From positions 5,022,001-5,086,000 of the forward strand of contig CP097466.1 in NCBI GenBank assembly GCA_041874725.1: 64,000 nt of DNA, read 5' to 3'. Shown one piece after another: positions 27,775 to 46,549 of this stretch; within the stretch, counting starts at the first letter, position 1; each line of letters begins with the position of its first letter. The DNA comes from Duganella sp. BuS-21. Its GTDB lineage: Bacteria; Pseudomonadota; Gammaproteobacteria; Burkholderiales; Burkholderiaceae_D. A program made the position numbers and the translations under genes. The notes under the pieces are model-generated. The model was not told where the DNA came from. It did not search any database and was given only the letters and a program-made list of their open reading frames with translations.

Positions 27775-28734
27775 TCAGGGAACCATCTTCACGCCGTGCA
27801 GCCACTGGACGAAATGCTCGACCCAGTGGTCGGCGCTGGTGCCGACCTGGCGCATGCTGAAGCCATGCTCGCCGGCCGAATAGATATGCAGCTCGGCGGA
27901 GCGGCCGGCGGCACGCCATGCTTCGAAGATCGGCACGCCGGCATACGCCATGATGCCGTCGTCGGCGGCCAGCGCCACGAACACCGGCGGCGCATCCTTC
28001 GGCACCGGCCGCTCCGGACCCGCGCCGTAGATGGAGCCGACAAAGTCGGGCCGGCTGGCGCCGTCGTAGCCGGTGGCGACGTTCATCGCCGTCATGCCGC
28101 CGGCGGAAAAGCCGATGATGCCGATCCTGGCCGGATCGACGCCGTACTCGCCCGCATGGGCGCGCACCCAGCGCAGCGCCGCCAAGCCATCTTCCTGCGC
28201 CAGCAGGATGCCCTTGGTCTCGGCGAAGTCGACATGCGTGCGGTTCGGCTTACCGTTGCGCATGCGGTTCTCCACCACGTCGAGGAAAGCCTTGCCGTCC
28301 TTGGGCGTCTGGTCGACGCGGTATTTCAGCACGAAGCAGGTGATGCCGCGTTCGGCCAGATACTTCGCCACCAGGATGCCTTCATTGTCGAAGGCGAGGC
28401 TGAGGAAGGCGCCGCCCGGCGCGATGATCACCGCCGTGCCGTTGGCCTTGCCGGCCGCCGGCCGCACCGGATACAGCGCCGGCTGCGTCACATTGCGCAC
28501 CACCCGGTGGCCGAACATATTGGCCCAGTCCTCGCTGCCGGGCGAGCCTGTCGCCGCTGCTGTCGCCAGCGGAATCGAAGGCTCGGTGGCGGCGGCAATC
28601 GGCTGCGGCGGATGCGCGGCCAGGAAGGCCGTCATGTCCTGCATGGTGAGCGGCTTGCCGCCGGGCTGCTGCGCGCACGCAGGAGCCGACAGCGCCACGC
28701 TAACCAGAAGTGCTGCGATCGCAGGTTTCTGCAT
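27775..28734 (-). CDS. Exported alpha/beta-hydrolase (esterase/acetylesterase-like)
   Basis: A 319-residue protein with a Sec signal (residues 1-21, KPAIAALLVSVALSAPACA). The oxyanion-hole motif IAPGGAFLS and the nucleophile elbow GFSAGG are clear; an Asp in ALAADDGI and the His in SAGEHGFSM complete the triad. Such enzymes deacylate sugars or aromatic esters. I start at 28734, which has a G-rich ribosome site; an ATG at 28749 overlaps the TonB-receptor stop by one base and is also possible. As last gene of the left arm, it may remove acyl groups from an incoming glycoside (inference). Confidence 0.88.
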   Translation of the reverse strand: MQKPAIAALLVSVALSAPACAQQPGGKPLTMQDMTAFLAAHPPQPIAAATEPSIPLATAAATGSPGSEDWANMFGHRVVRNVTQPALYPVRPAAGKANGTAVIIAPGGAFLSLAFDNEGILVAKYLAERGITCFVLKYRVDQTPKDGKAFLDVVENRMRNGKPNRTHVDFAETKGILLAQEDGLAALRWVRAHAGEYGVDPARIGIIGFSAGGMTAMNVATGYDGASRPDFVGSIYGAGPERPVPKDAPPVFVALAADDGIMAYAGVPIFEAWRAAGRSAELHIYSAGEHGFSMRQVGTSADHWVEHFVQWLHGVKMVP

Positions 28735-28748
28735 TATGGCGCCCCCCA

Positions 28749-31004
28749 TCAGAAGCGGTAGTCGACGGTGACGCCGACGCGGCGGAACGAGTTGTCGCCC
28801 AGGCTGTAGGCGTAGCCCGAACCGGCGCCCTTGCCTGGCAGCGGATACAGGATGCCGTTCGGCGCGCGCGTGTCGTTCAGGTTACGGCCGTACAGCGTGG
28901 CGCTCCACTTGTTGTCCGGCGAATTGAGCGTCAGGCGCATCGACGAAATCGTGTGGCCGCGGAAGCTGCACTCGACATCGTTCAGGTTACAGAAACGCAC
29001 GCGGCTCTTGTAGACCAGGTCACCACCGAGCTTCAGCTCATAGTCGCCCGGCAGTTCCCAGCTGTAGTCGGCCGACAGCGTGGCTTTCTGCTTCGGCGAA
29101 TACAGCAGGCGCTGGCCGCCGACATTGCTGTTGTCGAACACGAAGCCGGTCGGATAAGCCGTATCCAGGATCACCGCCAGGCTCATGCCCAGTTGCAGTG
29201 CCGGCACGGGGCGCGCACGGATGTCGGCCTCGAAGCCCTTGCTGATCACCTCCGGCACGTTGACCGGGATGCAGCTCAACGCGCCCACCGAGGTCAGGGT
29301 GCAGTTCTGTTCCTGGAAGTCCTTGATCTTGGTGTGGAACACGGCCAGGTCCACATCCAGGCGGCGATTCAGGTAGGACAGCTTGGTGCCCAGTTCCAGG
29401 CTGGTCGGCAGTTCCGGCTTGACCAGCTTGCCCTGGTAGTTGCCGGCGACTGTGGCGGCGCTGACCGGCGATTCATTGTCGATCTGCGGCCCCTTGTAGC
29501 CACGGCTCAGGGTCGCGTAGACATTGGCGTCTTTCGACCAGGTGTGCTGCAGGCCGACCTTGCCGGAGACGTTGGTCTCGGTGGCGCTGCCGGCGGCGGT
29601 GTTGACGGTGGCCGGCAGCGAGAAGCCGGTGAAGCTCACCACGCTGGACTGCTGGTAGTCGCTGCTGACGCTGTCGCGGGTATAGCGCAGGCCGGTGATC
29701 AGGCTGGTGGCGTCGCTCAGGCGGAAGGTGGTCTGGCCGAACAACGCCTTGGTGGTCAGCTTGGCCTGCTCCATCGAATCGGTGACGATGGAACGCGGCA
29801 CCGGTGGCGACGGCAGTACGGGATTCGGCAGGATGGTGGTGATGGTGCGGCGATCGACATCGGAATCGGCGTAGAACGCCCCCACCACATACTCGAACGG
29901 CTGCTTGGCCGGCGAAGCCAGGCGCAACTCCTGCGAGAACTGCTTCACATCCTGATACGGCGTGTAGTTGCGCACCTTGTCGTAGCCCTGCGACATATCG
30001 ATCGACACCTGGTTCGGACCGACTTCGCGCTTGCGGTAGGCGGTGATCGAGGTCAGCGTATCGCCGTTGCCGAGGCTCCAGTCAAGCTGACCGGAGAAAC
30101 CGCGCACCTGCGCGCGGGTCAGCTCCGGGCCGTCCGAGCACACCTGGTTGTTGGTCTTGGAGACCGTGACGCCGCAGGCCGCGAATTCCGCCAGCGGCTT
30201 GTGGTTGCCGGCGGTGTTGCTGGCGTAGGCCACGGCCGGCGCGAAGAACACGGCGTTTTCGGCGCGCGTATTGGACGCTTCGGCGATCAGGTTGAATACC
30301 AGGTCGCTGTTCGGCTTGAGCAGGTAGCGGATGCGCGCGCCGCTGTTCTTGGTCAGGCTATCCTTGTCGGTGAAGACGTTGTGGTACACGCCCTCATTGC
30401 GCTCGGTCAGGCCGGAGATGCGCAGCGCCGACATATCGTTGATCGGGATGTTGGTGGTGGCGCGCACTGCGGCGCCGTGATTGCCCTTGTACTCCAGCTG
30501 CACATTGCCGCTCATATCGCCGATGATCGGCGCCTGGGTCGACATGTTCAGCACACCGGCCGATGCGTTCTTGCCGAACAGCGTACCTTGCGGGCCGCGC
30601 AGCACTTCCACCCGCGCCAGGTCCAGCATCAAGCCGCTGGCGGTCGAACCTTGCGGCACGCCGTCCACCACCACGCCCACCGAGCTCTCGGCCGAAATCG
30701 TCATCACGGCGGTGCCGATGCCACGGATCGAGGCACTGCCGCCAGGGCCGGCGTTGGTATTCGGATCGCCGAATTCGAGCGCGGCGGCGGTCTTCGACAA
30801 ATCGCTGATGTCCTTGACGCCGGCGCGCTCCAGCTGCGTGGCGTTGACCACGGTAATCGCCACCGGTACTTCCTTGATGCTCTGGCTGCGTTTTTGCGCC
30901 GTCACGACCACGGTTTCGATTTCGGACTTGCTGTCGGATTGCGCGGAAGCCGGTTGCCAGATAGCGGCCAGGCTCATGCTCAGAATGGTCAGATGCGTTT
31001 TCAT
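28749..31004 (-). CDS. TonB-dependent outer-membrane receptor
   Basis: A 751-residue receptor with a signal peptide (about 1-21). A TonB box-like segment (IETVVVTAQKR) is followed by the plug domain (VPVAITVV, SIRGIG, VEVLRGPQGTLFGKNASAG) and a beta-barrel ending in Phe (VGVTVDYRF). It actively imports a substrate too large or scarce for porins. Its place directly after the ring-cleavage genes points to an aromatic compound or its glycoside rather than iron. It lies 47 bases after the FAD monooxygenase gene. Confidence 0.95.
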   Translation of the reverse strand: MKTHLTILSMSLAAIWQPASAQSDSKSEIETVVVTAQKRSQSIKEVPVAITVVNATQLERAGVKDISDLSKTAAALEFGDPNTNAGPGGSASIRGIGTAVMTISAESSVGVVVDGVPQGSTASGLMLDLARVEVLRGPQGTLFGKNASAGVLNMSTQAPIIGDMSGNVQLEYKGNHGAAVRATTNIPINDMSALRISGLTERNEGVYHNVFTDKDSLTKNSGARIRYLLKPNSDLVFNLIAEASNTRAENAVFFAPAVAYASNTAGNHKPLAEFAACGVTVSKTNNQVCSDGPELTRAQVRGFSGQLDWSLGNGDTLTSITAYRKREVGPNQVSIDMSQGYDKVRNYTPYQDVKQFSQELRLASPAKQPFEYVVGAFYADSDVDRRTITTILPNPVLPSPPVPRSIVTDSMEQAKLTTKALFGQTTFRLSDATSLITGLRYTRDSVSSDYQQSSVVSFTGFSLPATVNTAAGSATETNVSGKVGLQHTWSKDANVYATLSRGYKGPQIDNESPVSAATVAGNYQGKLVKPELPTSLELGTKLSYLNRRLDVDLAVFHTKIKDFQEQNCTLTSVGALSCIPVNVPEVISKGFEADIRARPVPALQLGMSLAVILDTAYPTGFVFDNSNVGGQRLLYSPKQKATLSADYSWELPGDYELKLGGDLVYKSRVRFCNLNDVECSFRGHTISSMRLTLNSPDNKWSATLYGRNLNDTRAPNGILYPLPGKGAGSGYAYSLGDNSFRRVGVTVDYRF

Positions 31005-31051
31005 GTGTGTCTCCTGTTTTTTTAATGAGTGCAGCTTCGTAGTGGACGAGG

Positions 31052-32620
31052 TTAAACGGTAACGGTGCGCGCCTCCCAGTCGTCAAGCAGCGCGGCCAGG
31101 GCCTCGCCGGTGGCGGCTACGCCATACACGTAGTGATCGGGACGGACGATCGCCGCACAGCAGGCGAAACGCGCAAACCATGCGGCCAGCACGCCGTCGC
31201 ATTCCGTCTCCGGGCCGACGTGCACCAGCGTGCCGAAGGCCTCCACGCGCGCGGCCAGCGCCGGCGGCAGCGACCAGGCGGGCAAGCTGGTGACCACGCG
31301 CCAGCCGCAGCCGGCCAGTTGGTCCATCAACTGCGGTCCTTGCGCTTGGCGCAGGCGCGGTTGCGGGAACAGCGTGCCGACGCCGCTCTTCGGCGCCAGT
31401 TCGATGCCGTCGCCGCCGCCGGCCAGCAGGCCGTGTTCCAGCGGCGGAATGATGTCCTGACGCGCCATGGTGCGGATCTCGCCGCCGGCGGCGGCAATCA
31501 GGCCGGCGTCGCGTTCGCGGGCGCGCTGCGGATCGCGCTCGCAGATCACGCGGCCGATGTCCTTGATGCGCGCGGTCAGCCGGCGCACATGGGCGCCGCG
31601 TTCCTTGCCGTAGCTGTCCAGCAGCGCCTCGCCGCCCTTGCCTTCCAGCGCGGCGCGCAGCTTCCACACCAGGTTGGCAACGTCGCGCACGCCCTGGCAC
31701 ATGCCCTGTCCCAGGAACGGCGGCTGCTGGTGCGCCGCATCGCCGGCGACGAACACACGGCCGTTGCGCCACTCGCGCGCCACCAGCGCATGAAAGCGGT
31801 AGCTGGCCTGGCGCCACAGCGCGCCGTCCTGCGGCGTGATCCAGCGTTTCAGCGCGCTCCATGCGCCTGCTTCGGTCGCCATATAGGCCGGGTCTTCATC
31901 CGGCAGCAGCGAAATCTCCCAGCGGCGGTGCATGCCGGGGCCGATCACGTAGGTGCAGGGACGCGCCGGTTCGCAATACTGCACGCTGGTCTTCGGCAGC
32001 TTGACCAGGCCGCGTTCATTGATCTGCACATCCACCACCAGCCAGGGCTCATCGAACTCCAGATCCTCCAGCGTGATGCCGACGGCGTCGCGCACCGTGC
32101 TCGATGCGCCGTCGCAGCCGATCACGTAGCTGGCGTGGACGCTGCGCTGCAGGCCTGCGTCGTCCATCAACAACAGCGTGGCCTGGTCGGCGTCCTGGCG
32201 CAGCGTGGCCAGACGCTGGCCCAACGCCACCGTCACCGACGGCAGCGCCGCCACGTGGGCGCGCAGCACGCGCTCCACTTCCGGTTGGGTGAACACCATC
32301 GACGGCGTGTGGCCGAGCGGGTACGGCGGCGCCACCGTCGCCAGGCGCTTGATCAACTGGCCGTCAGCGCCGTAATACTCGGACGGCGTGAACGGCTCGC
32401 AGTAGCGCGAGATCTCTTCGTCCAGGCCCAGTTGCTGAAACACGCGCATGATCTCGTGATCGAGGGCGATGGCGCGCGGCCGGTCGTACACGGCGAGGCT
32501 GCGGTCCACCACCAGCGTGCGCACGCCGGCCTGTCCCAGCAGCGCCGCCGCAACCGCGCCAGACGGCCCGAAGCCGACGATGGCAACGTCATAGCGGGCG
32601 TTGTCTTGCAGGCCGCTCAT
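31052..32620 (-). CDS. FAD-dependent aromatic monooxygenase (MhpA/FdeE-like)
   Basis: A 522-residue class A flavoprotein hydroxylase. It shows the FAD dinucleotide fold GFGPSG (residues 16-21), the GCDGASSTVR motif near 168-177 and the GD motif VAGDAAHQQPPFLGQGM near 285-300, plus the C-terminal thioredoxin-like domain of the phenol-hydroxylase family. Using NAD(P)H and oxygen, it should hydroxylate a phenolic ring ortho to an existing hydroxyl, readying it for extradiol cleavage. MhpA acts on hydroxyphenylpropionate and FdeE of Herbaspirillum on naringenin. Its neighbours, 1 base upstream FAH hydrolase then extradiol dioxygenase, fit this. Exact substrate is inferred. Confidence 0.9.
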   Translation of the reverse strand: MSGLQDNARYDVAIVGFGPSGAVAAALLGQAGVRTLVVDRSLAVYDRPRAIALDHEIMRVFQQLGLDEEISRYCEPFTPSEYYGADGQLIKRLATVAPPYPLGHTPSMVFTQPEVERVLRAHVAALPSVTVALGQRLATLRQDADQATLLLMDDAGLQRSVHASYVIGCDGASSTVRDAVGITLEDLEFDEPWLVVDVQINERGLVKLPKTSVQYCEPARPCTYVIGPGMHRRWEISLLPDEDPAYMATEAGAWSALKRWITPQDGALWRQASYRFHALVAREWRNGRVFVAGDAAHQQPPFLGQGMCQGVRDVANLVWKLRAALEGKGGEALLDSYGKERGAHVRRLTARIKDIGRVICERDPQRARERDAGLIAAAGGEIRTMARQDIIPPLEHGLLAGGGDGIELAPKSGVGTLFPQPRLRQAQGPQLMDQLAGCGWRVVTSLPAWSLPPALAARVEAFGTLVHVGPETECDGVLAAWFARFACCAAIVRPDHYVYGVAATGEALAALLDDWEARTVTV

Positions 32621-32621
32621 C

Positions 32622-33488
32622 TCAGGCTTCCTGCTCGATGGTGTTGACCAGCAGGCCGACCTTCTCGATCTCGATTTCGATCTTGTCGCCGTTTTTCATC
32701 CACACCGGCGGCGTGCGCGATTGGCCCACGCCGGCCGGCGTGCCCATGACGATCACATCGCCCGGTTCCAGCGTCACGCACTCGCTCAGCAGCGCGATGG
32801 TTTCGGCGACGTTCCAGATCATGTCGGTGGTGTTCGCATCCTGCATCACTTCGCCGTTCAGGCGTGCCTGGATTTTCAGGTTTTTGGCGCCCGGCTCCAG
32901 TTCGTCGGCCGTCACCAATTGCGGACCGAAGCCGCCGGTGCGGTCGAAGTTTTTACCGATGGTCCATTGCGGCGTGCGTTTCTGGTAATCGCGCACCGAC
33001 ATGTCGTTGAAGCAGGTGTAGCCGAAGACGTGCTGCAAGGCGTCGTCCTGGCTGACGTGGCGCGCGCGGCTGCCGATCACCACCGCCAGTTCGGCTTCGT
33101 AGTCGAAGCGGTCCGACACGCGCGGCAGCAGCGCCGCTTCGCCGTGCGCCAGCAGCGAGGTGTCGCAGCGCAGGAAGAACCATGGATAGACCGGCTTCTC
33201 GCGACCGCTTTCGGCGGCGTGGTCGTAGTAGTTCAGGCCCAGGCAGATGGTCTTGCCCGGCGACGGGATCAGCGGCGCCACGCTCACTTGCGACAGCGGC
33301 AGGCGATCCGCAGGCGTGGCCTGCGCCACGGCGACGCGGGCGGCGGCGCTCAGGTCGATACCGGCCAGCAGCGCCACCTTCAGATCGGATGGTACTTGCG
33401 GCAGCACGCGGTTGATGTCGATCACGCTGCCTTCACTGAGCACGCCGAGACGGGTGGTGGAACCGGAACGGAAGGTAATGAATTTCAA
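32622..33488 (-). CDS. Fumarylacetoacetate-hydrolase-family protein, first copy
   Basis: A 288-residue FAH-fold enzyme. Metal ligands lie in DYEAELAVVIG, and the fold continues with NDMSVRDYQ, TIGKNFDRTGGFGP and MGTPAGVG. Family members hydrolyse or decarboxylate the diketo acids made by ring cleavage. The start is TTG (33488) with a strong AGGAG site 9 bases before; the next ATG is far inside. It is 12 bases after the dioxygenase gene and 1 base before the monooxygenase gene, so it probably handles the product of that dioxygenase. Confidence 0.92.
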   Translation of the reverse strand: MKFITFRSGSTTRLGVLSEGSVIDINRVLPQVPSDLKVALLAGIDLSAAARVAVAQATPADRLPLSQVSVAPLIPSPGKTICLGLNYYDHAAESGREKPVYPWFFLRCDTSLLAHGEAALLPRVSDRFDYEAELAVVIGSRARHVSQDDALQHVFGYTCFNDMSVRDYQKRTPQWTIGKNFDRTGGFGPQLVTADELEPGAKNLKIQARLNGEVMQDANTTDMIWNVAETIALLSECVTLEPGDVIVMGTPAGVGQSRTPPVWMKNGDKIEIEIEKVGLLVNTIEQEA

Positions 33489-33500
33489 GGTCGTACTCCT

Positions 33501-34397
33501 TTATTGATTTGCGAAACGAATTTTTTTCTGTGCTTGCTTGATGCGGTCCGACGGCGGCTTCGATACGCCCCACTGGTCGAAGCGGCCCGGCGGCCAGGTC
33601 CAGTCTTCCGGCTTGCCGACGCGGTAGCTGTCGTCCACCTGCAGCACTTCGGCCGTGTACTCGATGACGAAATCGTCCGGGCCGATGAAGTAGCTGAAGA
33701 CGTTGTTGCCGGGACCATGACGGCCCACGCCCCATTCGATCGGGTAGCCGGCGTCGGTCATGCGTCCGCCGCCGCGCATCACCGCGTCCAGGTCCGGCAT
33801 GACGAAGGCGATGTGGTTCAGCGTGTTGGCGTCGGCATCGGCCAGCGCGATGCTGTGATGGTCGCTGCCGCAGCGCATGAAGGCCATGATGCGGGTGCGG
33901 TCCGACAGCGAGAAGCCCAGCGCGCGCTCGTAGAACGCCTGCGCCGCCGCCACGTCCGCGCTGTTGAACACCACGTGGGTGATGCGCACCGGGGCATCGG
34001 CGTTGGCCTCGCTGGCCGCATGCACCGCCGGCGCGTGCACAAAGCGCAGATGGCGACCCTGCGGGTCCTGCACGTCCAGCGCGCTGCCGCCATCGGCCTC
34101 CGTATTGTCATGCACATCGGCCAGCACCTGGCCGCCGTTGGCGCGCACGCCGTCGGCGATGCGTGCCAGGTCTTGCGCCTGCGCGACCACGAAATCGACA
34201 CGCCGCACATCCGGCTGCTGGCTGCGATGCAGCGCCAGGATGTGGTGATCCGCGCCGCTGCCGCGCAGGTAGACCGCATCGTCGGTGCGCGCGACCGGCG
34301 CCAGATGCCAGGTCGATACATAGAATTGTTCCGCCGCCGCCAGATCGGTCACGCCGATGGCGATGCTGCGTAATTTACCGGCAAGGGATGCAGGCAT
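33501..34397 (-). CDS. Two-domain extradiol ring-cleavage dioxygenase (VOC superfamily)
   Basis: A 298-residue protein with two VOC domains (about 8-122 and 138-270), the layout of catechol 2,3-dioxygenase-type enzymes. The iron triad is H141 (ITHVVFN), H195 (LNHIAFVM) and E246 (DFVIEYTAE). It should open a dihydroxylated ring next to the hydroxyls, using Fe(II) and oxygen. FdeC of the naringenin pathway is of this class. It sits between the ACMSD-like amidohydrolase (9 bases) and FAH (12 bases) genes. Confidence 0.92.
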   Translation of the reverse strand: MPASLAGKLRSIAIGVTDLAAAEQFYVSTWHLAPVARTDDAVYLRGSGADHHILALHRSQQPDVRRVDFVVAQAQDLARIADGVRANGGQVLADVHDNTEADGGSALDVQDPQGRHLRFVHAPAVHAASEANADAPVRITHVVFNSADVAAAQAFYERALGFSLSDRTRIMAFMRCGSDHHSIALADADANTLNHIAFVMPDLDAVMRGGGRMTDAGYPIEWGVGRHGPGNNVFSYFIGPDDFVIEYTAEVLQVDDSYRVGKPEDWTWPPGRFDQWGVSKPPSDRIKQAQKKIRFANQ

Positions 34398-34406
34398 GGT
34401 CAGTCC

Positions 34407-35429
34407 TTATTGCAAAGTGGATGGAAGGCCGAGGAATCGCTCGGCGTTGTGCGTAATAAGCCGCGTGCGCAGCGCGGCGTCGGCCACGGCGTCGTTGATC
34501 GACGCCAGAGGCTTGCATTCATGGAAAGCGAACGGGTAATCGGTGCCGATCATCAGCTGGCTCTCGCCAAAGCTTGCCAGCAGGTGCTGCAAGGTTGGCG
34601 CATCGAACACCAGCGCGTCGTAGAACAGCCGGCGAGCCTGCTCGGATGGACCGCAAGGCATGGCCTCCTGCAGCGCAGGGAACACGCGGCGTGCCTGCTC
34701 AAGGCGCGGCAGCAGCGCCGCCAAGGTGCCGCCGCCGTGGCTGAAGGCGATGCGCAATTTCGGATGGCGCTCGATCAGGTTGGTGGTCAATACCGACGCT
34801 GCGGCCAGGCCGATATCGGTCGGATAGCCGAGCGCTTGCTGCAACTGTGCCGGCCCCACCAGGCGTTCCTTGCCGGCCGGGCGCAGCGCATGCACGAATA
34901 CCGCCGCACCTTTGGCCTCCGCCGCCGCAAAGAACGGCGCGAACTCCGGCGCACCGGGCGGCTTGCCGTTGATATTGCTGCCGATTTCCACGCCGGCGAA
35001 ACCCAGCCGGTCGACCACGTAGTCGAGTTCCGCCAGCGCCAGGTCCATATCCTGCAGCGGCACCGCGCCCAGCGCGCACAGGCGGCCACCGGACAGGCCG
35101 ACCATCTCCGCCATCTGCTCATTGATATAGCGTAGCAGCTGCGCGGCGGCGGCCGGCGCCATCCAGTAGGACAGCAGCTCCGGCATGGGCGAAATCACCT
35201 GCAGCGACAGGCCCATGGCATCCATGTCCTCGATGCGGCGCGTAGGACTCCAGCAACGCTCGGACACCGTGCGATACACCTTGCCCGAAATGACCACATG
35301 CCGATGGCACGCATACGCCGGCGCCATCGACGGCCAGTCGGCCGGCGCGGCACTGCCCAGGTATGCCGGAAAATGCTCGGGCACGACGTGGCTGTGGATA
35401 TCGATGCCGCAGGTGCAGGAAGCTTGCAT
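34407..35429 (-). CDS. Amidohydrolase-2 family decarboxylase/hydrolase (ACMSD-like)
   Basis: A 340-residue protein with the metal-binding HxH at the start (IDIHSHVVPEHFP), an internal SHGGGTLAALLPR (His ligand) and a C-terminal Asp in MIGTDYPFAFHE. This is the amidohydrolase-2 group, which includes aminocarboxymuconate semialdehyde decarboxylase and aromatic acid decarboxylases. In this operon it likely decarboxylates or hydrolyses an aromatic or ring-cleaved acid (inference). It starts 1 base after the stop of the HbpS-like gene, so the two are coupled. Confidence 0.9.
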   Translation of the reverse strand: MQASCTCGIDIHSHVVPEHFPAYLGSAAPADWPSMAPAYACHRHVVISGKVYRTVSERCWSPTRRIEDMDAMGLSLQVISPMPELLSYWMAPAAAAQLLRYINEQMAEMVGLSGGRLCALGAVPLQDMDLALAELDYVVDRLGFAGVEIGSNINGKPPGAPEFAPFFAAAEAKGAAVFVHALRPAGKERLVGPAQLQQALGYPTDIGLAAASVLTTNLIERHPKLRIAFSHGGGTLAALLPRLEQARRVFPALQEAMPCGPSEQARRLFYDALVFDAPTLQHLLASFGESQLMIGTDYPFAFHECKPLASINDAVADAALRTRLITHNAERFLGLPSTLQ

Positions 35430-35430
35430 G

Positions 35431-35856
35431 TCAGTCCGCCTTCAGGCCGGCGGTGACGATGCCGTGGATGCAGATCGCCTCGTCCTCGTCGCCGGTGCCG
35501 CCGCTGGCGCCCACCGCGCCGAGGATATTGCCCTCGGCGTCTTTGACCAGCACACCACCCACCTGCGGGATGAACTTGCCCTGGCCCGTGCTGGCCAGCG
35601 CGCCGAAGAAGCTTGGATTGTCGGCCGCGCGTTTCATCAGCGCGCGGCTATGCACGCCCATCGCCACCGCCGCCCAGGCTTTGCCGGTGGCGATATCGGC
35701 GCGGAACATGCTGGCGCCGTCCTGGCGTTGCATGGCGACCAGGTGGCCGCCGGCGTCCAGCACCACGGCGGACATCGGACGATAGCCCTTGCTGCCGGCT
35801 TCCTGCAGGGCGGCGTTGAGAATGATATTGGCGGCGGCGAGATTCAGTTCGGTCAT
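35431..35856 (-). CDS. GlcG/HbpS-family (haem-degrading-like) protein
   Basis: A 141-residue single-domain protein: GYRPMSAVVLDAGGHLVAMQ followed by a conserved Ser/Arg-rich helix and PQVGGVLVKDAEGNILGAVG, then SGGTGDEDEAIC at the end. The family is often found in aromatic or glycolate operons and some members bind haem or a small ligand, but many have no known reaction. No signal peptide. It sits 24 bases after the MFS gene. Its role in the pathway is unassigned. Confidence 0.88.
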   Translation of the reverse strand: MTELNLAAANIILNAALQEAGSKGYRPMSAVVLDAGGHLVAMQRQDGASMFRADIATGKAWAAVAMGVHSRALMKRAADNPSFFGALASTGQGKFIPQVGGVLVKDAEGNILGAVGASGGTGDEDEAICIHGIVTAGLKAD

Positions 35857-35880
35857 GATGGTTAGCTCAAGTGGATAAAA

Positions 35881-37035: not shown

Positions 37036-37111
37036 GGAATGTCTCCGTCGTTTTAATTTTGTGACGACGAAGATATCAGCGGAACCCTGCAATCTCATAA
37101 GCCAGTGTTTT

Positions 37112-37175
37112 GATATGAGCTATCGCGGATTGTGATTCCTTTGCGCGATAGCTGGTATCACCAAATTAGGCTTTG
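37112..37175. promoter_or_regulatory. Divergent regulatory region with two GATA-N5-TATC boxes and a NodD-type ATC-N9-GAT
   Basis: The 202-base gap between the two arms holds GATATGAGCTATC (37112-37124) and GATAGCTGGTATC (37147-37159), 35 bases apart. The second box continues CACCAAATTAGGCTTTG and is repeated near 45232. ATC (37122-37124), nine bases and GAT (37134-37136) match the ATC-N9-GAT half-site of NodD-type LysR regulators. Likely target of the LysR protein at 44284. Confidence 0.6.
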
Positions 37176-37237
37176 GTCGTCTACGGGGCGTAGATAGACT
37201 TTCCCTCCATTCGATCACTAGAAAATTTGGAGACTCC

Positions 37238-38470
37238 ATGAACGGCATCATTTTCAACAATGTGCGCATTTTCGACGGCACGCACATGCTGGACACCTCG
37301 GGCAAAGGCGCGGTACGCGTCGAAGGCCAGCGCATCACCCAGGTCAGCGCCGATGGGAACATCGCTCCTCAGGACGGTGACCGCGTCATCGACGGCGCCG
37401 GCGCCACGCTGATGCCCGGCCTGATCGAAGCCCACGCCCACCTGTCCTGGCCCAGCTCCGTGGAGCGCTTCGTGCCCGGCATGGCGCTGCCGCTGGAAGA
37501 CCTGGTGCTGACCACCGCGCGCAACGCCCGCATCCTGCTGGACCACGGTTTCACCGGCGCCTACTCGGCCGGCTCGCTCAGCAAGACGGTGGAAACCACG
37601 CTGAAAACCTTTATCGACAGCGGCGGCATGCCCGGCCCGCGCCTGGTCGCATCGTCGATCGAACGCTCGCCGCCGAGCGCCGATGAACTGAGCCCGGGCC
37701 AGGTGGAAGAACACGGCACCGGCCCGGAAGCGGTGCGCGGCTTTGTGCGCGACTGCGCGGCGCTTGGCGCCAAGTCGGTCAAGTTCCTGCTCTCCGGCGA
37801 AGACGCCCTGCTGCCTGGCGCCTCGCAACAGCTGCTCTACTCGCAGGAAGAAGCCAGCGCCGCCGGTGAACAGGCGCGCGAATCGAATGTCTGGCTGGCG
37901 GCCCACGCTCAGGCATCGGACGCGGTGAAGATGGCGATACGCGCCGGCTTCCGTGTGCTGTACCACTGCACCTACGCCGACTCCGAAGCGCTGGACATGC
38001 TGGAAGCGGCGCGCGACGACATCTTCGTCGCCCCCGCCATCGGCATCATCCAGGCCACGCTGGACGCCGCGCCGCCGCCGCACTTCGACATGAGCCACAT
38101 GAAGCGCAGCGCCGCCGAAGTGCTGGAATTGCAATCGAAGCTGATACCGGAACTAAAACGACGCGGCGTGCGCATCCTGCCGGGCGGCGACTATGGCTTC
38201 CCGTTCAATCCCAACGGCCGCAACGCGCGCGATCTGGAACTGTTCGTGCGTCTGTTTGGCTACACGCCGGTGGAAGCGCTTTCAGCGGCCACGCTGCTGG
38301 GCGGCCAGTTGATGGGCCAAGGCGAGGAACTGGGCCAGATCAAGCCGGGCTACCTGGCCGACCTGCTGCTGGTGGACGGCGAACCGGATCAGGATGTGAC
38401 GGTGCTGCAGGACCGCAAGCGTCTGCGCGCGATCATGAAGGACGGCGCCTTCCACAAAGATCCACGCTGA
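37238..38470 (+). CDS. Amidohydrolase-family (metal-dependent imidazolonepropionase-like) protein, copy 1
   Basis: A 410-residue TIM-barrel hydrolase with the N-terminal beta-sandwich (IFNNVRIFDGTHMLD). H66 and H68 (LIEAHAHLSW) bind metal, K in SVKFLLSG is the likely carbamylated Lys, and AAHAQ, YHCTYAD and LPGGDYG carry the other ligands. Its relative at 45317 has the same length and very similar sequence (ARNARILLDHGFTGAYSAG vs ARNARILLDHGYTSAYSAG). Substrate unknown; in this locus it may cleave an aromatic ester, lactone or C-C bond (inference). First gene of the right arm. Confidence 0.9.
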   Translation: MNGIIFNNVRIFDGTHMLDTSGKGAVRVEGQRITQVSADGNIAPQDGDRVIDGAGATLMPGLIEAHAHLSWPSSVERFVPGMALPLEDLVLTTARNARILLDHGFTGAYSAGSLSKTVETTLKTFIDSGGMPGPRLVASSIERSPPSADELSPGQVEEHGTGPEAVRGFVRDCAALGAKSVKFLLSGEDALLPGASQQLLYSQEEASAAGEQARESNVWLAAHAQASDAVKMAIRAGFRVLYHCTYADSEALDMLEAARDDIFVAPAIGIIQATLDAAPPPHFDMSHMKRSAAEVLELQSKLIPELKRRGVRILPGGDYGFPFNPNGRNARDLELFVRLFGYTPVEALSAATLLGGQLMGQGEELGQIKPGYLADLLLVDGEPDQDVTVLQDRKRLRAIMKDGAFHKDPR

Positions 38471-38479
38471 GGAAGCGCC

Positions 38480-39367
38480 ATGTCCCATCCTTTCGAAGCA
38501 GTGATCCGCGCGGCGGGCGCGGTGATCGACCCGCCGTTCGCCCGCAATCTCTACGCGCCGGTGCTGGAACAGTCGCCGCAAGGCGGCACGGTGGAGCGCG
38601 ACCTGTCCTACGGCAGCCATGCGCGCCACAAGCTTGACGTGTACCGCCCGCTGGGCGAGGCGCCGCAAGACGGCTTTCCGGTGCTGATCTTCCTGCACGG
38701 CGGCGGCTTCCTGCGCGGCGACAAGGCCGAACGTGAAAACTTCGGCCGCTACTTCTCGCGCAACGGCGTGTTGAGCATCGTGCCGAACTACCGCCTGGCG
38801 CCTGAAGTTCAGTGGCCGGCCGGTGCGCAGGACGCCTCCTCCGTTTTCGCCTGGGCACGCGAGAACATCGCGCGCCACGGCGGCAATCCTGCGCACATCG
38901 TCATCGCCGGTGAATCCGCCGGCGCCGCACACGTGGCGGCGGCCACGCTGATCCAGCGCTTCCAACCCTCCGGCGGCGTGCATCCGGCCGGCGTGGCGCT
39001 GGTCTCCGGCGTCTACAACGCAGGGCTGGAGCTGCGCGCGCGTGAACAATTCGGCATCGCCACGCCCGATCCGCGCAACGAGGCCTACTTCGGCGCCGAC
39101 CTGTCGCGCCACGCCGCCATGTCCACCGTGGACCTGATCGACGCCGCGCCCCTGCCCACCTTCATCAGCTATGCGGAACTCGATCCGCCACAGATGCAGG
39201 TGCAGTCCGGCGAACTGTTTGCACGCCTGGTCACGCGCCACGGCTACCACCCTTACATCCACGTGGTGCGCGGGCACAATCACCTCACCCAGGTCTACGC
39301 CGTCAACACCGGCGACGACAGCCTGTCGGCCGCGTTGCTGAAATTCGTGCGCGATCTGGATTCGTGA
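38480..39367 (+). CDS. Alpha/beta-hydrolase (hormone-sensitive-lipase-type esterase)
   Basis: A 295-residue esterase with no signal peptide. The oxyanion motif HGGGFLRGDK, nucleophile elbow GESAGA and a late His in VRGHNHL are clear; an Asp near YAELDPPQ may complete the triad. It starts 9 bases after the amidohydrolase stop, with a GGAAGC ribosome site. Alpha/beta hydrolases in such loci split esters or lactones of aromatic acids or a ring-fission product; which applies is unknown. Confidence 0.9.
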   Translation: MSHPFEAVIRAAGAVIDPPFARNLYAPVLEQSPQGGTVERDLSYGSHARHKLDVYRPLGEAPQDGFPVLIFLHGGGFLRGDKAERENFGRYFSRNGVLSIVPNYRLAPEVQWPAGAQDASSVFAWARENIARHGGNPAHIVIAGESAGAAHVAAATLIQRFQPSGGVHPAGVALVSGVYNAGLELRAREQFGIATPDPRNEAYFGADLSRHAAMSTVDLIDAAPLPTFISYAELDPPQMQVQSGELFARLVTRHGYHPYIHVVRGHNHLTQVYAVNTGDDSLSAALLKFVRDLDS

Positions 39368-39454
39368 TACGTGCTATTGCAACTCATCGTTTTACTGATG
39401 GACGCCGCACTGTTATGGTGTGATCACTAAAAAAGCCGTACAACGGAGACAACC

Positions 39455-42850: not shown

Positions 42851-42868
42851 ACCAACACTGGAGACACC

Positions 42869-44206
42869 ATGGAAGACAAGAAAATCATCGCATCCCGCCG
42901 CAGCACGTTGAAAGCCGTCGCCGCACTGACCGGCACCGCGCTGCTGTCGCCGCTGTCGTTCGCAGCAGACAAAGCCTACCGCTTCCCGAAAGGCTTCCTG
43001 TGGGGCGCGGCCACCGCCGGCCACCAGGTCGAAGGCGACAACGTCCACAGCGATGCGTGGCTGCTGGAGAACGTCAAGCCATCCATCTTCGTCGAACCAT
43101 CCGGCGCCGGCGTGGACCATTACCGCCTGTTCGACCAGGACATCGCCATGCTGGCGTCGCTGGGCCTGAACAGCTTCCGCTTTTCGATCGAATGGGCGCG
43201 GGTGGAACCGGAAGAAGGCATGTTCTCGGTGGCGGCGATTGAACACTACCGCGACGTGCTGGCCTCCTGCCACAAGCACAAGGTAAAAGCGGTGGTCTCG
43301 TTCAACCACTTCATCACGCCTTACTGGTTCGCCGGCCGTGGCGGCTGGGAAGCCGAAGGTGCGGCGCAGCTGTTCGCGCGCTACTGCACCAAGGTCGCCA
43401 CCGAGCTGGGCGACAAGATGGACCTGGCCACCACCTTCAACGAACCGAATCTGGCGCAGCTGCTGTTCGGCATTCCAGGCCCGTTGTCCGGCCTGACCGG
43501 CATCCCGCCGGAGAAAGCCATGCTGAAAGCAGCGGGCGAGCGCGCCGGCACCGGCAAATTCTCCTCGTGGATATTCGGCGACTTCGCCAAGATCCAGACC
43601 GGCATGCTGGAAGGCCATCGCCTCGGCTACCAGGCCATCAAGGCCGCATGTCCGAAACTGCCGGTGGGCGTGTCGCTGGCCATCGCCGACGACCAGGCCG
43701 TGGGCGACGCGACCATGCGCGACCGCAAGCGCGCGATCGCCTACGAGCCGTGGTTCAAGGCCGTCTCCGAACACGGCGACTTTATCGGCGTGCAGACCTA
43801 CACCCGCAGCCTGATCTCGTCCGAAGGCGAACTGCCGCCACCGGCCGGCGCGCGCCTGACCAGCAACCACATGGAATTCTGGCCGGAAGCGCTGGGCGCC
43901 ACCATCCGCTACACCGCCCAGCACGTGAAGGTGCCGATCTACGTCACCGAAAACGGCATCTCCGCCGACGACGACAAGCAGCGCGAGGAATACATCCAGC
44001 GCGCACTGAAGAGCACCGCCGACTGCCTGCGCGACGGCATCGACGTGCGCGGCTACCTGCATTGGTCGCTGCTGGACAACTTCGAATGGATCTTCGGATA
44101 CAAGCCACGTTTCGGCCTGATCGCCGTGGACCGCTCGACGATGCGCCGCACCATCAAGCCAAGTGCGCGTCTGCTGGGTGGCATCGCCCGCAAAAACAGC
44201 ATCTGA
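42869..44206 (+). CDS. GH1 beta-glucosidase with twin-arginine signal
   Basis: A 445-residue retaining glucosidase. The N terminus has a Tat motif (SRRSTLKAVAAL, residues 9-20) and an Ala-rich signal ending near FAADKA. Catalytic residues are the acid/base E192 (TFNEPN) and nucleophile E361 (YVTENGIS), with the SLLDNFEW substrate motif. It should act in the periplasm on the beta-glucoside left after rhamnose removal. GGAGAC precedes the ATG, 18 bases after the rhamnosidase stop. It is distinct from the cytoplasmic GH1 at 19296. Confidence 0.93.
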   Translation: MEDKKIIASRRSTLKAVAALTGTALLSPLSFAADKAYRFPKGFLWGAATAGHQVEGDNVHSDAWLLENVKPSIFVEPSGAGVDHYRLFDQDIAMLASLGLNSFRFSIEWARVEPEEGMFSVAAIEHYRDVLASCHKHKVKAVVSFNHFITPYWFAGRGGWEAEGAAQLFARYCTKVATELGDKMDLATTFNEPNLAQLLFGIPGPLSGLTGIPPEKAMLKAAGERAGTGKFSSWIFGDFAKIQTGMLEGHRLGYQAIKAACPKLPVGVSLAIADDQAVGDATMRDRKRAIAYEPWFKAVSEHGDFIGVQTYTRSLISSEGELPPPAGARLTSNHMEFWPEALGATIRYTAQHVKVPIYVTENGISADDDKQREEYIQRALKSTADCLRDGIDVRGYLHWSLLDNFEWIFGYKPRFGLIAVDRSTMRRTIKPSARLLGGIARKNSI

Positions 44207-44223
44207 TGCGGGAGGCATTGCCT

Positions 44224-44243
44224 GCTTGCGCGGCCGCGCAAGC
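44224..44243. other. Perfect 20-bp palindrome between GH1 and the LysR gene
   Basis: GCTTGCGCGGCCGCGCAAGC is fully self-complementary. With no T-run on either strand it may be a regulator-binding site for the lysR promoter or a weak terminator for GH1. Confidence 0.55.
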
Positions 44244-44283
44244 ATCGCGTACCATGTACCAGTCGGAACATGGAGGGTAGGTC

Positions 44284-45222
44284 ATGCGATTCAACCGTCT
44301 GGACCTGAACCTTCTGCTGGCGCTCGACGCGCTGCTGAAGGAACAGAACATCACGCGGGCAGCGGCGCGCGTCAACGTCAGCCAGTCCGCCATGAGCGGC
44401 ATGCTGGCACGCCTGCGCGAGTTCTTCGAAGACGAGCTGCTGGCGGCCGTCGGCCGCAACATGGAACCGACGGTGCTGGGCCGCCAGCTGGAAGCGCCGG
44501 TGCGCGATCTGATCCTGCACATCCACGCCACGGTCGGTATGCGCGTCAGCTTCGACCCGGCCAAGGAAACCCGCTGCGTCAAGATCATGGTGTCTGATTA
44601 CGCCACCGAAGTATTCCTCAACCGCGTGGTGGCGCGCGTGCTGCGCGACGCGCCCAACATGACGCTGGACCTGGTGCCGCTGGCCGACGACGCCAGCGAA
44701 CAACTGCGGCGCGGCGAGAATGACTTCCTCATCATTCCCCGCACCTTCCTGGCCGAAGAACATCCACAACGGTTGCTGTTTGAAGACAGCTACTGCGCGC
44801 TTATCTGGGAGGGCAACACGCAGGTCGGCGACACGCTGGATGCCGAAACCTACCTGCGCCTGCCGCACGTGGCACCGATGCTGGGCCGTCCGCGATCGGC
44901 AACCTTTGAGGAACTGATGCTGCAAGGCCTGGGCGTGCAGCGTCGCATCAAGGTCACCACTTCGGACTTCGTCAGCATGGCCTCGGTCCTGATCGGCACC
45001 GACCTGGTGGCGACCATGCACACGCGCCTGGCGCAAGCCTGCGCGCGGCGCCTGCCGGTGCGCCTGCTGCCCCTGCCCTACACGCTGCCGCTGATGGCGG
45101 AATGCGTGCAGTGGCACCGCTTTCAAGAGAACGATCCGTGCCACATCTGGCTGCGCGGCGTGATGCTGGAAGTGGCCAAGGCCATGCCGCCTTACGACGT
45201 GCTGGCCGCGCAGGTACGGTAA
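44284..45222 (+). CDS. LysR-type regulator, NodD/FdeR-like
   Basis: A 312-residue regulator. Residues 1-60 (MRFNRLDLNLLLALDALLKE, then ARVNVSQSAMSGMLARLRE) carry the LysR helix-turn-helix in the style of NodD-type, flavonoid-sensing members; VKIMVSDYATEVFL starts the inducer domain. NodD and FdeR respond to flavonoids (established for those proteins); the similarity here is by eye. GGAGGGTAG precedes the ATG. It sits between GH1 and the second amidohydrolase and probably controls both arms through the GATA-N5-TATC and ATC-N9-GAT sites at 37112-37175 and 45232. Confidence 0.9.
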   Translation: MRFNRLDLNLLLALDALLKEQNITRAAARVNVSQSAMSGMLARLREFFEDELLAAVGRNMEPTVLGRQLEAPVRDLILHIHATVGMRVSFDPAKETRCVKIMVSDYATEVFLNRVVARVLRDAPNMTLDLVPLADDASEQLRRGENDFLIIPRTFLAEEHPQRLLFEDSYCALIWEGNTQVGDTLDAETYLRLPHVAPMLGRPRSATFEELMLQGLGVQRRIKVTTSDFVSMASVLIGTDLVATMHTRLAQACARRLPVRLLPLPYTLPLMAECVQWHRFQENDPCHIWLRGVMLEVAKAMPPYDVLAAQVR

Positions 45223-45231
45223 GGACGGCGT

Positions 45232-45260
45232 GATAGCAGGTATCGCCAAAATCAGCTTCG
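45232..45260 (+). promoter_or_regulatory. GATA-N5-TATC box upstream of the second amidohydrolase
   Basis: GATAGCAGGTATC (45232-45244) followed by GCCAAAATCAGCTTCG aligns with the box at 37147-37175 (GATAGCTGGTATC then ACCAAATTAGGCTTTG). It lies 10 bases after the lysR stop and 73-85 bases before the amidohydrolase start. Confidence 0.6.
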
Positions 45261-45316
45261 CTATGGCCTGATGCGGCGCTATGCTGTTTTCTGGGCTATC
45301 AATCGGAAGGAATGCC

Positions 45317-46549
45317 ATGCCCGGCATCGTTTTTCACAACGTGAGTATTTTTGACGGCAGCGGACCGCTGCCGGGCATCGGCGCCGTGCGCATCGAAGGG
45401 TCGAGCATCGTCGAACTGGCGGCCGACCTGGCCTCGCTGAGCGGCGTGGCGGACCGCATCATCGATGGCGGCGGCCGCACCCTGATGCCGGGATTGGTGG
45501 AAGCGCATGCGCACCTGTCGTGGCCCAGTTCCGTGGAGCGGTTCGTGCCGCGCCTGTCGCTGCCGCCGGAAGACCTGATCCTGACCACCGCGCGCAACGC
45601 CCGCATTCTGCTCGATCACGGCTACACCAGCGCCTACTCGGCGGGGGCCTTGAGCAAGACCATCGAAGTGACACTGAATTCATTCATCCAAAGCGGCGGC
45701 ATGCCGGGACCGCGTTTGATCGCCTCGTCGATCGAACGCGAACCGCCAACCTGCGGCGCCTTCGACGGCGGCAAGGTCGATCCGCACGGCAGCGGCCCGG
45801 AAGCGGTGCGCGCCTTCGTGCGCGAGTGCGCCACGCTGGGCGCGAAGTCGGTCAAGTTCTTGTTGTCGGGCGAAGACGCGCTGAAACCGGGCAGTTCGCA
45901 GGAGCTGCTGTACACGCAGGAAGAAGCCGATGCGGCCGGCGACCAGGCGCGCATCTCGGGCGTCTGGCTGGCGGCGCATGCGCAGGCTGCGGCGGCGGTG
46001 AAGATGGCCCTGCGCGCCAACTTTCGCGTGCTGTATCACTGCACCTGGGCCGACGTCGAAGCGCTGGACATGATGGAATACAAGCGCGACGAAATCTTCG
46101 TCGGCCCGGCGGTCGGCATCATCCAGGCCACGCTCGACACCGAACCGCCGCAAGGCATCGACATGACGGAGATGAAACGCAGCGCGGCGCTGGTGCTGGC
46201 GCGCCAGCGCGAACTGATACCGGAACTGCGCCGGCGCGGCGTGCGCGTACTGCCGGGCGGCGACTACGGCTTCCCGTTCAATCCCACCGGCCGCAACGCG
46301 CGCGACCTGGAACTGTTCGTGCACCACTTCGGCTACACGCCGTGCGAAACGCTGGAAGCGGCGACGCGGCTGGGCGGAGAACTGATGGGCATGGGCCACC
46401 TGCTCGGCCGCATCAAAGCCGGCTACCTGGCCGACCTGCTGCTGGTCGACGGCGACCCGTTGCAAGACATCACCATCCTGCAAGACCGCAGCCGCCTGCA
46501 CGCCATCATGAAGGATGGACGCTTTCACAAAGAGCCGGCATGCGGCTAG
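45317..46549 (+). CDS. Amidohydrolase-family protein, copy 2
   Basis: A 410-residue paralogue of the protein at 37238, same length, with the same ligands (VEAHAHLSW, SVKFLLSG, AAHAQ, YHCTWAD, LPGGDYG). I chose the ATG at 45317 with GGAAGGA upstream; this restores length parity with copy 1. The two genes bracket the right arm. Duplicates could serve two substrates, two products of one pathway or different stereoisomers. Confidence 0.9.
   Translation: MPGIVFHNVSIFDGSGPLPGIGAVRIEGSSIVELAADLASLSGVADRIIDGGGRTLMPGLVEAHAHLSWPSSVERFVPRLSLPPEDLILTTARNARILLDHGYTSAYSAGALSKTIEVTLNSFIQSGGMPGPRLIASSIEREPPTCGAFDGGKVDPHGSGPEAVRAFVRECATLGAKSVKFLLSGEDALKPGSSQELLYTQEEADAAGDQARISGVWLAAHAQAAAAVKMALRANFRVLYHCTWADVEALDMMEYKRDEIFVGPAVGIIQATLDTEPPQGIDMTEMKRSAALVLARQRELIPELRRRGVRVLPGGDYGFPFNPTGRNARDLELFVHHFGYTPCETLEAATRLGGELMGMGHLLGRIKAGYLADLLLVDGDPLQDITILQDRSRLHAIMKDGRFHKEPACG

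What the first reader, a model, noticed from the sequence alone, without database searches (positions are those of the whole stretch)
27775..46549. Predicted flavonoid-glycoside catabolic locus with deglycosylation, ring cleavage and a NodD/FdeR-like regulator in one block
Seen: a GH106-type rhamnosidase and Tat-exported GH1 glucosidase sit beside a FAD aromatic monooxygenase, extradiol dioxygenase, FAH hydrolase, ACMSD-like and other hydrolases, TonB receptor, MFS and LysR gene. Known: Herbaspirillum seropedicae degrades naringenin with a flavin monooxygenase (FdeE), an extradiol dioxygenase (FdeC) and LysR regulator FdeR; GH106 and GH1 enzymes can strip rhamnose and glucose from rutinosides. 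Inference: this locus unites uptake, deglycosylation and ring attack of a glycosylated flavonoid. The twin amidohydrolases, HbpS-like protein and esterases would be new pathway members.
Basis: partly seen in the sequence, partly recalled or inferred. Interest (0 to 1): 0.82.

Follow-up and report, generated by a model that had tools for sequence, protein, structure and literature searches.

The report
Plant phenolic-glycoside degradation regulon
A soil bacterium carries one apparently co-regulated set of genes that looks built to take up a sugar-decorated plant phenolic, probably a flavonoid, strip its sugars outside the inner membrane and break its ring inside the cell, with ring-breaking enzymes of a different kind from the known flavonoid pathway.

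Summary
The locus behaves as one unit. Its glycosidases, esterases, receptor and FMO/EDO/FAH genes recur together, rearranged, in two sphingomonads and an erythrobacterium. In 74 genus genomes the close FMO and close GH1 occur in the same 8, always clustered. A 13-bp dyad, GATA-N5-TATC, marks its promoters (4 in the window, 0.12 expected; 39 in 11 relatives, 0.47 expected). Sequence suggests an outer-membrane receptor, periplasmic esterase, rhamnosidase and glucosidase, an inner-membrane importer and a cytosolic ring-cleavage core. The importer is one of two FdeF-like MFS proteins in the genome; the LysR is FdeR-like. PP1Y's version of the locus holds the GH106 of PDB 6q2f. The FdeE/FdeC analogy fails: the FMO is 23% identical to FdeE-type, no Rieske partner is present, and a separate fde-type operon lies 1.23 Mb away. 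The core has the hcd/mhp-like layout FMO, type I extradiol dioxygenase, FAA hydrolase, common in Burkholderiales without nearby glycosidases. Flavonoid is the likeliest aglycone, unproven; the link to fde fails outside the genus (0 of 5). New variant of a known kind.

The parts
27775..28749 (-). est1: alpha/beta hydrolase (acetylxylan/pectin acetylesterase-like) with signal-peptide-like N-terminus; putative periplasmic deacylase
   Evidence: relatives (44-46%) in the loci of PP1Y, TomTYG65 and Croceibacterium
28749..31004 (-). TonB-dependent receptor; outer-membrane uptake (a 28% identical one stands there in D. guangzhouensis)
31052..32620 (-). FMO: class A flavin monooxygenase, 522 aa, MhpA-like (NF004829, 501.8 bits, cut-off 390); not FdeE-type
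32622..33488 (-). FAH: fumarylacetoacetate-hydrolase family, probable hydrolase of the ring-cleavage product
33501..34397 (-). EDO: two-domain type I (VOC) extradiol dioxygenase, H141/H195/E246 conserved
34407..35429 (-). AH2: amidohydrolase-2 (ACMSD-like) decarboxylase or hydrolase
35431..35856 (-). HbpS-like small protein of the ring-cleavage core
35881..37098 (-). MFS: FdeF-like importer (one of two in the genome at E<=1e-5); real start probably 37035
37112..37124 (.). GATA-N5-TATC dyad, divergent MFS/AH1a promoter (overlaps the T-N11-A box ATC-N9-GAT at 37122-37136)
37147..37159 (.). second GATA-N5-TATC dyad of the divergent promoter
37238..38470 (+). AH1a: amidohydrolase-1 (prolidase/imidazolonepropionase-like), no signal peptide seen; often with the core
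38480..39367 (+). est2: HSL-type alpha/beta hydrolase (HGGG, GESAG), cytosolic by sequence
39366..39378 (.). degenerate dyad (GATACGTGCTATT, one mismatch) 77 bases before GH106; perfect dyads lie 77-78 bases before GH106 in L006 and L007
39455..42850 (+). GH106 alpha-L-rhamnosidase, 1131 aa, signal-peptide-like N-terminus
42869..44206 (+). GH1 beta-glucosidase, Tat-type N-terminus, NEP and TENG glutamates
44284..45222 (+). LysR regulator of the FdeR-like group
45232..45244 (.). GATA-N5-TATC dyad between LysR and AH1b
45281..46549 (+). AH1b: paralogue of AH1a (72% identical)

Best explanation
The block is one regulon for growth on a rhamnose- and glucose-bearing plant phenolic. Proposed route: (1) the TonB receptor takes the glycoside across the outer membrane; (2) in the periplasm est1 removes an acyl group, GH106 a terminal rhamnose and the Tat-exported GH1 the glucose; (3) the FdeF-like MFS brings the aglycone into the cytosol; (4) AH1a/AH1b and est2 open an ester, lactone or C-ring-derived bond; (5) the MhpA/HcdA-like FMO adds a hydroxyl next to an existing one, the type I extradiol dioxygenase opens the ring, and FAH with AH2 hydrolyses or decarboxylates the acylpyruvate-like product. 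The FdeR-like LysR switches the units on, probably through the GATA-N5-TATC / T-N11-A promoter sites. The aglycone is most likely a flavonoid or flavonoid fragment (about 0.55), handled alongside, not by, the genome's separate fde-type operon. Shown by sequence: gene content, conserved residues, conserved co-occurrence, shared promoter dyad, FdeF/FdeR kinship. Inferred: localisation, order of steps, aglycone, and which protein binds the dyad.
For: Related sets, rearranged: Sphingobium TomTYG65 (AH1-FMO-HbpS-EDO-FAH-TBDR-est2-GH1-est1-GH106, 12868-26615 of L107), Novosphingobium PP1Y (the same ten gene types), Croceibacterium (est1, GH1, est2, TBDR, FAH, FMO, EDO, GH106). In 74 genus genomes the close FMO (70% or more) occurs in 8 and the close GH1 (69% or more) in the same 8, gaps 96-10249 bases; GH106 lies within 7 kb of the FMO in 7 of the 8. 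Dyad: 4 in the window against 0.12 expected; 39 in 11 distinct relatives against 0.47, 36 of them within 250 bases before MFS/TBDR, AH1a, GH106, GH1 or est1. FdeF-type MFS has two homologues in the genome at E<=1e-5: in the fde-type operon (58%) and here (54%). LysR 41% to the fde-type LysR, third of 9 hits. PP1Y's GH106 in its version of the locus matches PDB 6q2f over all 1099 residues given, 2519.7 bits; a PP1Y GH106 is reported to act on flavonoid glycosides (PMC10653915, passage). All 8 locus-bearing genus genomes also carry an FdeE-type gene (67% or more), against 20 of 74 overall. A C-glycoside deglycosidase beta subunit lies within about 5 kb of an FdeC-like gene and an FdeR-like LysR elsewhere in the genome.
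Against: No gene is assigned to a substrate by orthology to a characterised ring-attacking enzyme; FMO and EDO are far from FdeE/FdeC. The same core is common in Burkholderiales loci without GH1 or GH106 within about 10 kb, and a TctC-type receptor gene, typical of small aromatic acids, occurs in 46 of 89 loci (one member of that cluster scanned). Outside the genus the link to fde fails: of 5 other family genomes with the FMO, 0 have an FdeE-type match, and two of these (L016, L113) carry glycosidases in the locus. AH1a was found in only 2 of those 5. AH2 and the MFS were not found in the three alphaproteobacterial loci, nor AH1 and HbpS in Croceibacterium. GH106 can also act on saponins (SpGH106-1, PMC10653915). 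The dyad was not found in L098 or L112. Genus co-occurrence is not corrected for phylogeny.
Confidence: 0.55

Rival explanations
1. The aglycone is a different plant phenolic, such as a hydroxycoumarin, hydroxyphenylpropionate/cinnamate ester (phenylethanoid glycoside) or other resorcinol-type acid. The core works as in hcdABC: FMO to a trihydroxy ring, extradiol cleavage, FAA hydrolase.
For: hcdABC of Pseudomonas mandelii 7HK4 is FMO + type I EDO + FAA-family hydrolase (PMC6222606, passages and sections 8-9). The FMO passes the NCBI 3-HPP/3-hydroxycinnamate hydroxylase subfamily cut-off. TctC receptor genes in 46 of 89 loci suggest an aromatic acid. Two esterases and two amidohydrolases fit an ester or lactone substrate.
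Against: No match like HcdE-G (alcohol dehydrogenase, cupin, FMN reductase) among the locus genes scanned. FdeF-like MFS and FdeR-like LysR point to flavonoids. Rhamnosyl-glucosides are typical of flavonoids (general knowledge).
Confidence: 0.3
2. One reading: a flavonoid locus in which this FMO and EDO are functional FdeE/FdeC equivalents (C8 hydroxylation, A-ring cleavage).
For: FdeR-like LysR and FdeF-like MFS; FMO + EDO + FAH logic is shared with fde; glycosidases present. In L016 and L113 the glycosidase-bearing locus stands in genomes without an FdeE-type match, where redundancy is no objection.
Against: 23-24% FMO identity and no Rieske partner found; an fde-type gene exists in the same genome and in all 8 locus-bearing genus genomes, so there this pair would be redundant.
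Confidence: 0.1
3. Two unrelated neighbours, a glycan/saponin deglycosylation set and an aromatic-acid set, brought together by chance.
For: Each half occurs alone elsewhere: core without glycosidases nearby, GH1-GH106-TBDR without the core in the 19 kb fetched (L108, L109).
Against: Recurrence in distant lineages, 8-of-8 co-occurrence, shared promoter dyad, and FMO-GH1 gaps of 96-166 bases in four genomes.
Confidence: 0.05

Closest known systems
fde operon of Herbaspirillum seropedicae (naringenin; FdeE FMO, FdeD Rieske, FdeC dioxygenase, FdeR)
   Same: FdeR-like LysR and FdeF-like MFS; general logic of hydroxylation, extradiol cleavage, FAH hydrolase
   Different: FMO and EDO belong to other subfamilies; no Rieske, cupin, epimerase or cyclase match among the locus genes scanned; glycosidases, TonB receptor, AH1, AH2 and HbpS-like genes added; a separate fde-type operon is in the same genome
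hcdABC of Pseudomonas mandelii 7HK4 (7-hydroxycoumarin via 2,4-dihydroxyphenylpropionate)
   Same: class A FMO (62 kDa there, 522 aa here), type I extradiol dioxygenase and FAA-family hydrolase together
   Different: HcdE-G-like genes not seen; glycosidases and amidohydrolases not mentioned in the passages read; sequences could not be compared
ifc cluster of Variovorax V35 (isoflavones)
   Same: flavonoid A-ring logic; FMO + glyoxalase-type dioxygenase
   Different: IfcA/IfcB are reported as relatives of FdeE/FdeC (36.3%, 65.8%) and IfcA acts on aglycones; no cupin like IfcD1/D2 among the locus genes
RHA-P, GH106 alpha-L-rhamnosidase of Novosphingobium PP1Y (that PDB 6q2f is RHA-P is recalled)
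   Same: GH106; the PP1Y protein in L003 is 39% identical over 1131 aligned positions, matches 6q2f, and sits in the related locus
   Different: the surrounding locus is not described in the passages seen; the original RHA-P papers were not seen

Membership tests
fde operon | FdeE-type FMO (about 375 residues) | tested here: not met
   window FMO 522 aa, 23.4% to the genome's FdeE-type FMO (376 aa), which is 66% to that of L112
fde operon | Rieske partner FdeD next to the FMO | tested here: not met
   no Rieske match in the window genes scanned; present in the fde-type operon
fde operon | FdeC-type dioxygenase | tested here: not met
   28.7-38.2% identity (best alignments 144-268 of 298 residues), against 60-81% among the three fde-type proteins compared
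fde operon | FdeR-type LysR regulator | tested here: met
   41% to the LysR of L112, third of 9 hits in the genome; two other loci have closer ones (55%, 47%)
fde operon | FdeF-position MFS | tested here: met
   54%, E 1.9e-105; one of two homologues in the genome; the letter F is inferred from gene order, and that it carries flavonoids is not shown
fde operon | Induction by naringenin | not testable with these tools
   needs expression data
hcd-type pathway | FMO + type I EDO + FAA hydrolase adjacent | tested here: met
   31052-34397; family level only
hcd-type pathway | Orthology to HcdA/B/C | not tested
   sequences MH346032-4 not held
hcd-type pathway | HcdDEFG upstream genes | tested here: not met
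   no ADH, cupin or FMN reductase match among the locus genes
mhp (3-HPP) pathway | MhpA-type FMO | tested here: met
   NF004829, 501.8 bits against cut-off 390; other MhpA models below their cut-offs
mhp (3-HPP) pathway | LigB-type MhpB and MhpCDEF | tested here: not met
   dioxygenase is VOC type; no MhpD/E/F model among the locus genes
GH106 alpha-L-rhamnosidase | Pfam GH106 above cut-off with conserved acidic residues | tested here: met
   937.5 bits, cut-off 29; D483 and E486 in 16 of 16, E563 in 15 of 16
GH106 alpha-L-rhamnosidase | Activity on flavonoid rhamnosides | not testable with these tools
   enzyme assay needed

The most novel reading that the evidence does not exclude
The locus encodes a second, undescribed bacterial route into flavonoid rings: an FdeR-family regulator acting at GATA-N5-TATC sites controls a full path from glycoside import to ring opening. 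Its FMO/EDO/AH1/AH2/HbpS core attacks a ring or fragment that the Fde enzymes do not handle, and some genomes carry both routes to finish both halves of the molecule.
Probability: 0.3. Interest if true: 0.7.

Novelty: new variant of a known kind. Interest (0 to 1): 0.52.

Why it matters
Plants ship most flavonoids and many phenolics as glycosides (general knowledge), but the soil catabolic operons in the passages read here (fde, ifc, hcd) start from aglycones or small phenolics. This locus would link glycoside import and periplasmic sugar removal to ring cleavage under one control, and it places a structurally solved rhamnosidase (PP1Y) in a probable physiological context. It also shows how a common ring-cleavage core is combined with exchangeable glycosidases and receptors, and it gives a testable operator.

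Tried and rejected
FAH as an L-rhamnonate-pathway hydrolase (NF053535, 195.6 bits, cut-off 500): rejected, since FAH stays with the core in many loci with no rhamnosidase nearby.

Genomic island at tRNA-Pro (48147-48223): no second copy of its 3' end (16-25 bases) in the window; integration not supported. The empty site was not tested.

Obligate partnership with fde: 8 of 8 genus genomes but 0 of 5 other family genomes; so not obligate. In some searches only 5-6 candidates per genome were scored, so weaker matches could be missed.

Dyad in fde-type regions: none in L098 or L112; L099 has one, inside a VanA-like ORF; so the site is not a general FdeR-family site. Of the window's four perfect dyads one (29153) is inside TBDR. 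Of the 39 in relatives, 36 lie within 250 bases before a start, one (L008 771) lies next to the end of LysR as in the window, and 2 are inside TBDR and EDO genes.

The Croceibacterium gene labelled quercetin 2,3-dioxygenase shows only cupin-type matches; not used as evidence of quercetin use.

Literature: searches listed no paper that I recognised as describing such a locus (listings only; one search returned nothing; the library holds open-licence PMC papers only). Seen: PMC11069340 (abstract, outline, passages, section 15), PMC6222606 (passages, sections 8-9), PMC7913881 (passages, figure legends); passages only of PMC11303751, PMC8552027, PMC10799723, PMC6828813, PMC10653915, PMC8563793; PMC4440368 held none of the terms sought; PMC6073497 and PMC8147964 gave reference entries only. 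The Marin 2013/2016 fde papers, De Lise 2016, Mensitieri 2018 and the 6q2f paper were not seen.

L114 is the same contig as L016 and was left out of the tree, the residue counts and the 39 dyads. The FMO tree is a quick one and its own output warns of long branches meeting. No structure prediction was run. Statistics ignore phylogeny.
Full report
What is there. The window lies in a 6.49 Mb single-contig genome (positions 5022001-5086000). Its closest relatives by protein identity are Duganella and other Oxalobacteraceae. Two divergent groups start from 37.1 kb: MFS-HbpS-AH2-EDO-FAH-FMO-TBDR-est1 on the minus strand, and AH1a-est2-GH106-GH1-LysR-AH1b on the plus strand. The checked residues are conserved. 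By N-terminal sequence, est1, TBDR, GH106 and the Tat-type GH1 look exported; FMO, HbpS, AH1a/b and est2 do not (by eye).

It is one unit. (a) tblastn of the window proteins against 84 loci shows glycosidases together with ring-cleavage genes in Duganella, Massilia, Telluria and Pseudoduganella. Related sets, rearranged, stand in Novosphingobium PP1Y and Sphingobium TomTYG65 (AH1, FMO, HbpS, EDO, FAH, TBDR, est2, GH1, est1, GH106) and in Croceibacterium (the same without AH1 and HbpS); AH2 and the MFS were not found in these three. (b) In 74 genomes of the genus the close FMO (70% or more) occurs in 8 and the close GH1 (69% or more) in exactly the same 8; FMO-GH1 gaps are 96-10249 bases. GH106 lies within 7 kb of the FMO in 7 of the 8; in G023 (the contig of L008 by position) the GH106 genes are on other contigs. 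Six more genomes have an FMO of 45-48% without the close GH1; in G034 a GH106 lies about 37 kb away on the same contig. (c) The dyad GATA-N5-TATC occurs 4 times in the window (0.12 expected) and 39 times in 11 distinct relatives (0.47 expected); 36 of those 39 lie within 250 bases before MFS/TBDR, AH1a, GH106, GH1 or est1, one lies beside the end of LysR and 2 are inside genes. In the MFS promoter a LysR-type T-N11-A box (ATC-N9-GAT) occurs in the window and all 11 Oxalobacteraceae relatives aligned (L114 dropped) and in 2 of 6 other rows. Seventy other loci with the core, nearly all without glycosidases, hold 7 dyads. Glycosidases and ring-cleavage genes therefore share a likely control element.

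Modules. In Paraburkholderia L022, L042, L045 and L065 the core comes with AH1a, est2, a LysR 51-52% identical to the window's and the MFS but no glycosidase match in the locus, so these genes belong to the aglycone part. In D. guangzhouensis (L008) alignment runs from the start of GH106 straight to GH1 without the rest of GH106, and the TonB receptor is a different one. In Massilia-type relatives GH106 is only 39-42% identical although the FMO is about 70%. The FMO tree separates six alphaproteobacterial plasmid enzymes from the others by a long branch, and the label 'glycosidases in the locus' needs 6 changes (quick tree). Glycosidases and receptor thus look exchangeable around a stable core; whether the association arose more than once or was lost repeatedly is open.

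Not the fde pathway proper. Papers give FdeE as an FAD monooxygenase and FdeC as a glyoxalase-type dioxygenase (PMC11069340, passages), FdeD as a Rieske partner and FdeA as a relative of a 'phenol degradation protein' (PMC8552027, passages), with the fdeR-fdeA intergenic region as promoter (PMC10799723, passages). The window's genome has the counterpart at about 3.808-3.824 Mb (LysR | DUF1302, DUF1329, YCF48-like, MMPL, S9, VOC, Rieske, FMO, MFS, cupin, SDR, FAH, epimerase), some 1.23 Mb away. The window FMO is 23.4% identical to that FMO and the window EDO 29-36% to the genome's two FdeC-like proteins. No Rieske match was seen among the window genes scanned.

Why flavonoid remains the best guess. 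The MFS of L112's fde operon has two homologues in this genome at E<=1e-5: the one in the fde-type operon (58%) and the window's (54%). L112's LysR ranks the window LysR third (41%), after the fde-type operon's (55%) and one at 3.862 Mb (47%). All 8 locus-bearing genus genomes also carry an FdeE-type gene, against 20 of 74 overall (8.4e-6 by a count that ignores phylogeny). The genome further has, at 3.852-3.870 Mb, an FdeC-like gene (80% to the operon copy), GFO/IDH, AP_endonuc_2 and a C-glycoside deglycosidase beta subunit, another GH1, and two FdeR-like LysR genes, which resembles the DgpA/C/B set for a flavonoid C-glycoside (PMC8563793, passages). PP1Y's GH106 inside its version of the locus matches PDB 6q2f over all 1099 residues given (2519.7 bits; identity not printed); that 6q2f is RHA-P I recall, no call says so. 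A PP1Y GH106 is reported to act on flavonoid glycosides (PMC10653915). Against: outside the genus 0 of 5 genomes with the FMO show the FdeE-type gene, two of them with glycosidases in the locus, and TctC receptor genes in 46 of 89 loci suggest that the core itself takes a small aromatic acid.

What the core most resembles. FMO + type I extradiol dioxygenase + FAA-family hydrolase is the composition of hcdABC, where a trihydroxylated ring is cleaved and the product hydrolysed (PMC6222606). The NCBI subfamily match of the FMO is the 3-HPP/3-hydroxycinnamate hydroxylase group. AH2 is nearest to ACMSD among solved structures. I therefore propose that the core opens a resorcinol- or phloroglucinol-type ring or a C6-C3 acid released from the aglycone, with AH1 and est2 acting before it. 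This is inference.

Verdict. Observation confirmed; interpretation partly supported. A coherent, apparently co-regulated plant phenolic-glycoside locus with a different ring-cleavage core from the one named; new variant of a known kind.

Noticed in passing
G000 C1:3852390-3869823 (L100, L115): Probable C-glycoside locus: FdeC-like VOC, TonB receptors, GFO/IDH oxidoreductase, AP_endonuc_2 protein (352 aa) and C-glycoside deglycosidase beta subunit (PF19906), LacI and two FdeR-like LysR genes, another GH1.
   Followed up: partly
G000 C1:3808080-3823740 (L098, L099): A separate fde-type operon (FdeC-D-E order) with DUF1302/DUF1329/YCF48/MMPL genes where L112 has a Phenol_MetA_deg gene.
   Followed up: partly
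L002 (Massilia putida plasmid) 13004-36888; L004 (N. aromaticivorans pNL2) 8851-24867: Core genes lie beside a second set of aromatic genes (M. putida: FAD oxidoreductase, VOC, Rieske, hisD, SDR, FAH; pNL2: FAH, cupin, SDR, hisD, VOC, FAD monooxygenase) on plasmids of two proteobacterial classes.
   Followed up: partly
L108 9355-16321; L109 8865-16969: GH1-GH106-TonB receptor sets without the ring-cleavage core in the 19 kb fetched; L109 also has a LysR 42% identical to the window's.
   Followed up: no
window 16671-24392: GH3 (16671-19247) and a second GH1 (19296-20660) glycosidase near a solute-binding protein (23109-24392), perhaps a separate oligosaccharide-use operon.
   Followed up: no
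window 25271-27754: TadE/TadG-like pilus genes directly beside est1; Duganella relatives L006 and L007 keep this left flank.
   Followed up: partly
window 46550-47168: Stretch without a picked gene between AH1b and an alpha/beta hydrolase (47169-47957); the 46001-48000 bin has the lowest G+C of the 2-kb profile (0.578).
   Followed up: no
window 48576-49283: Small FAA-hydrolase-family protein (235 aa) just outside the locus; could be an acylpyruvase for the last step.
   Followed up: no
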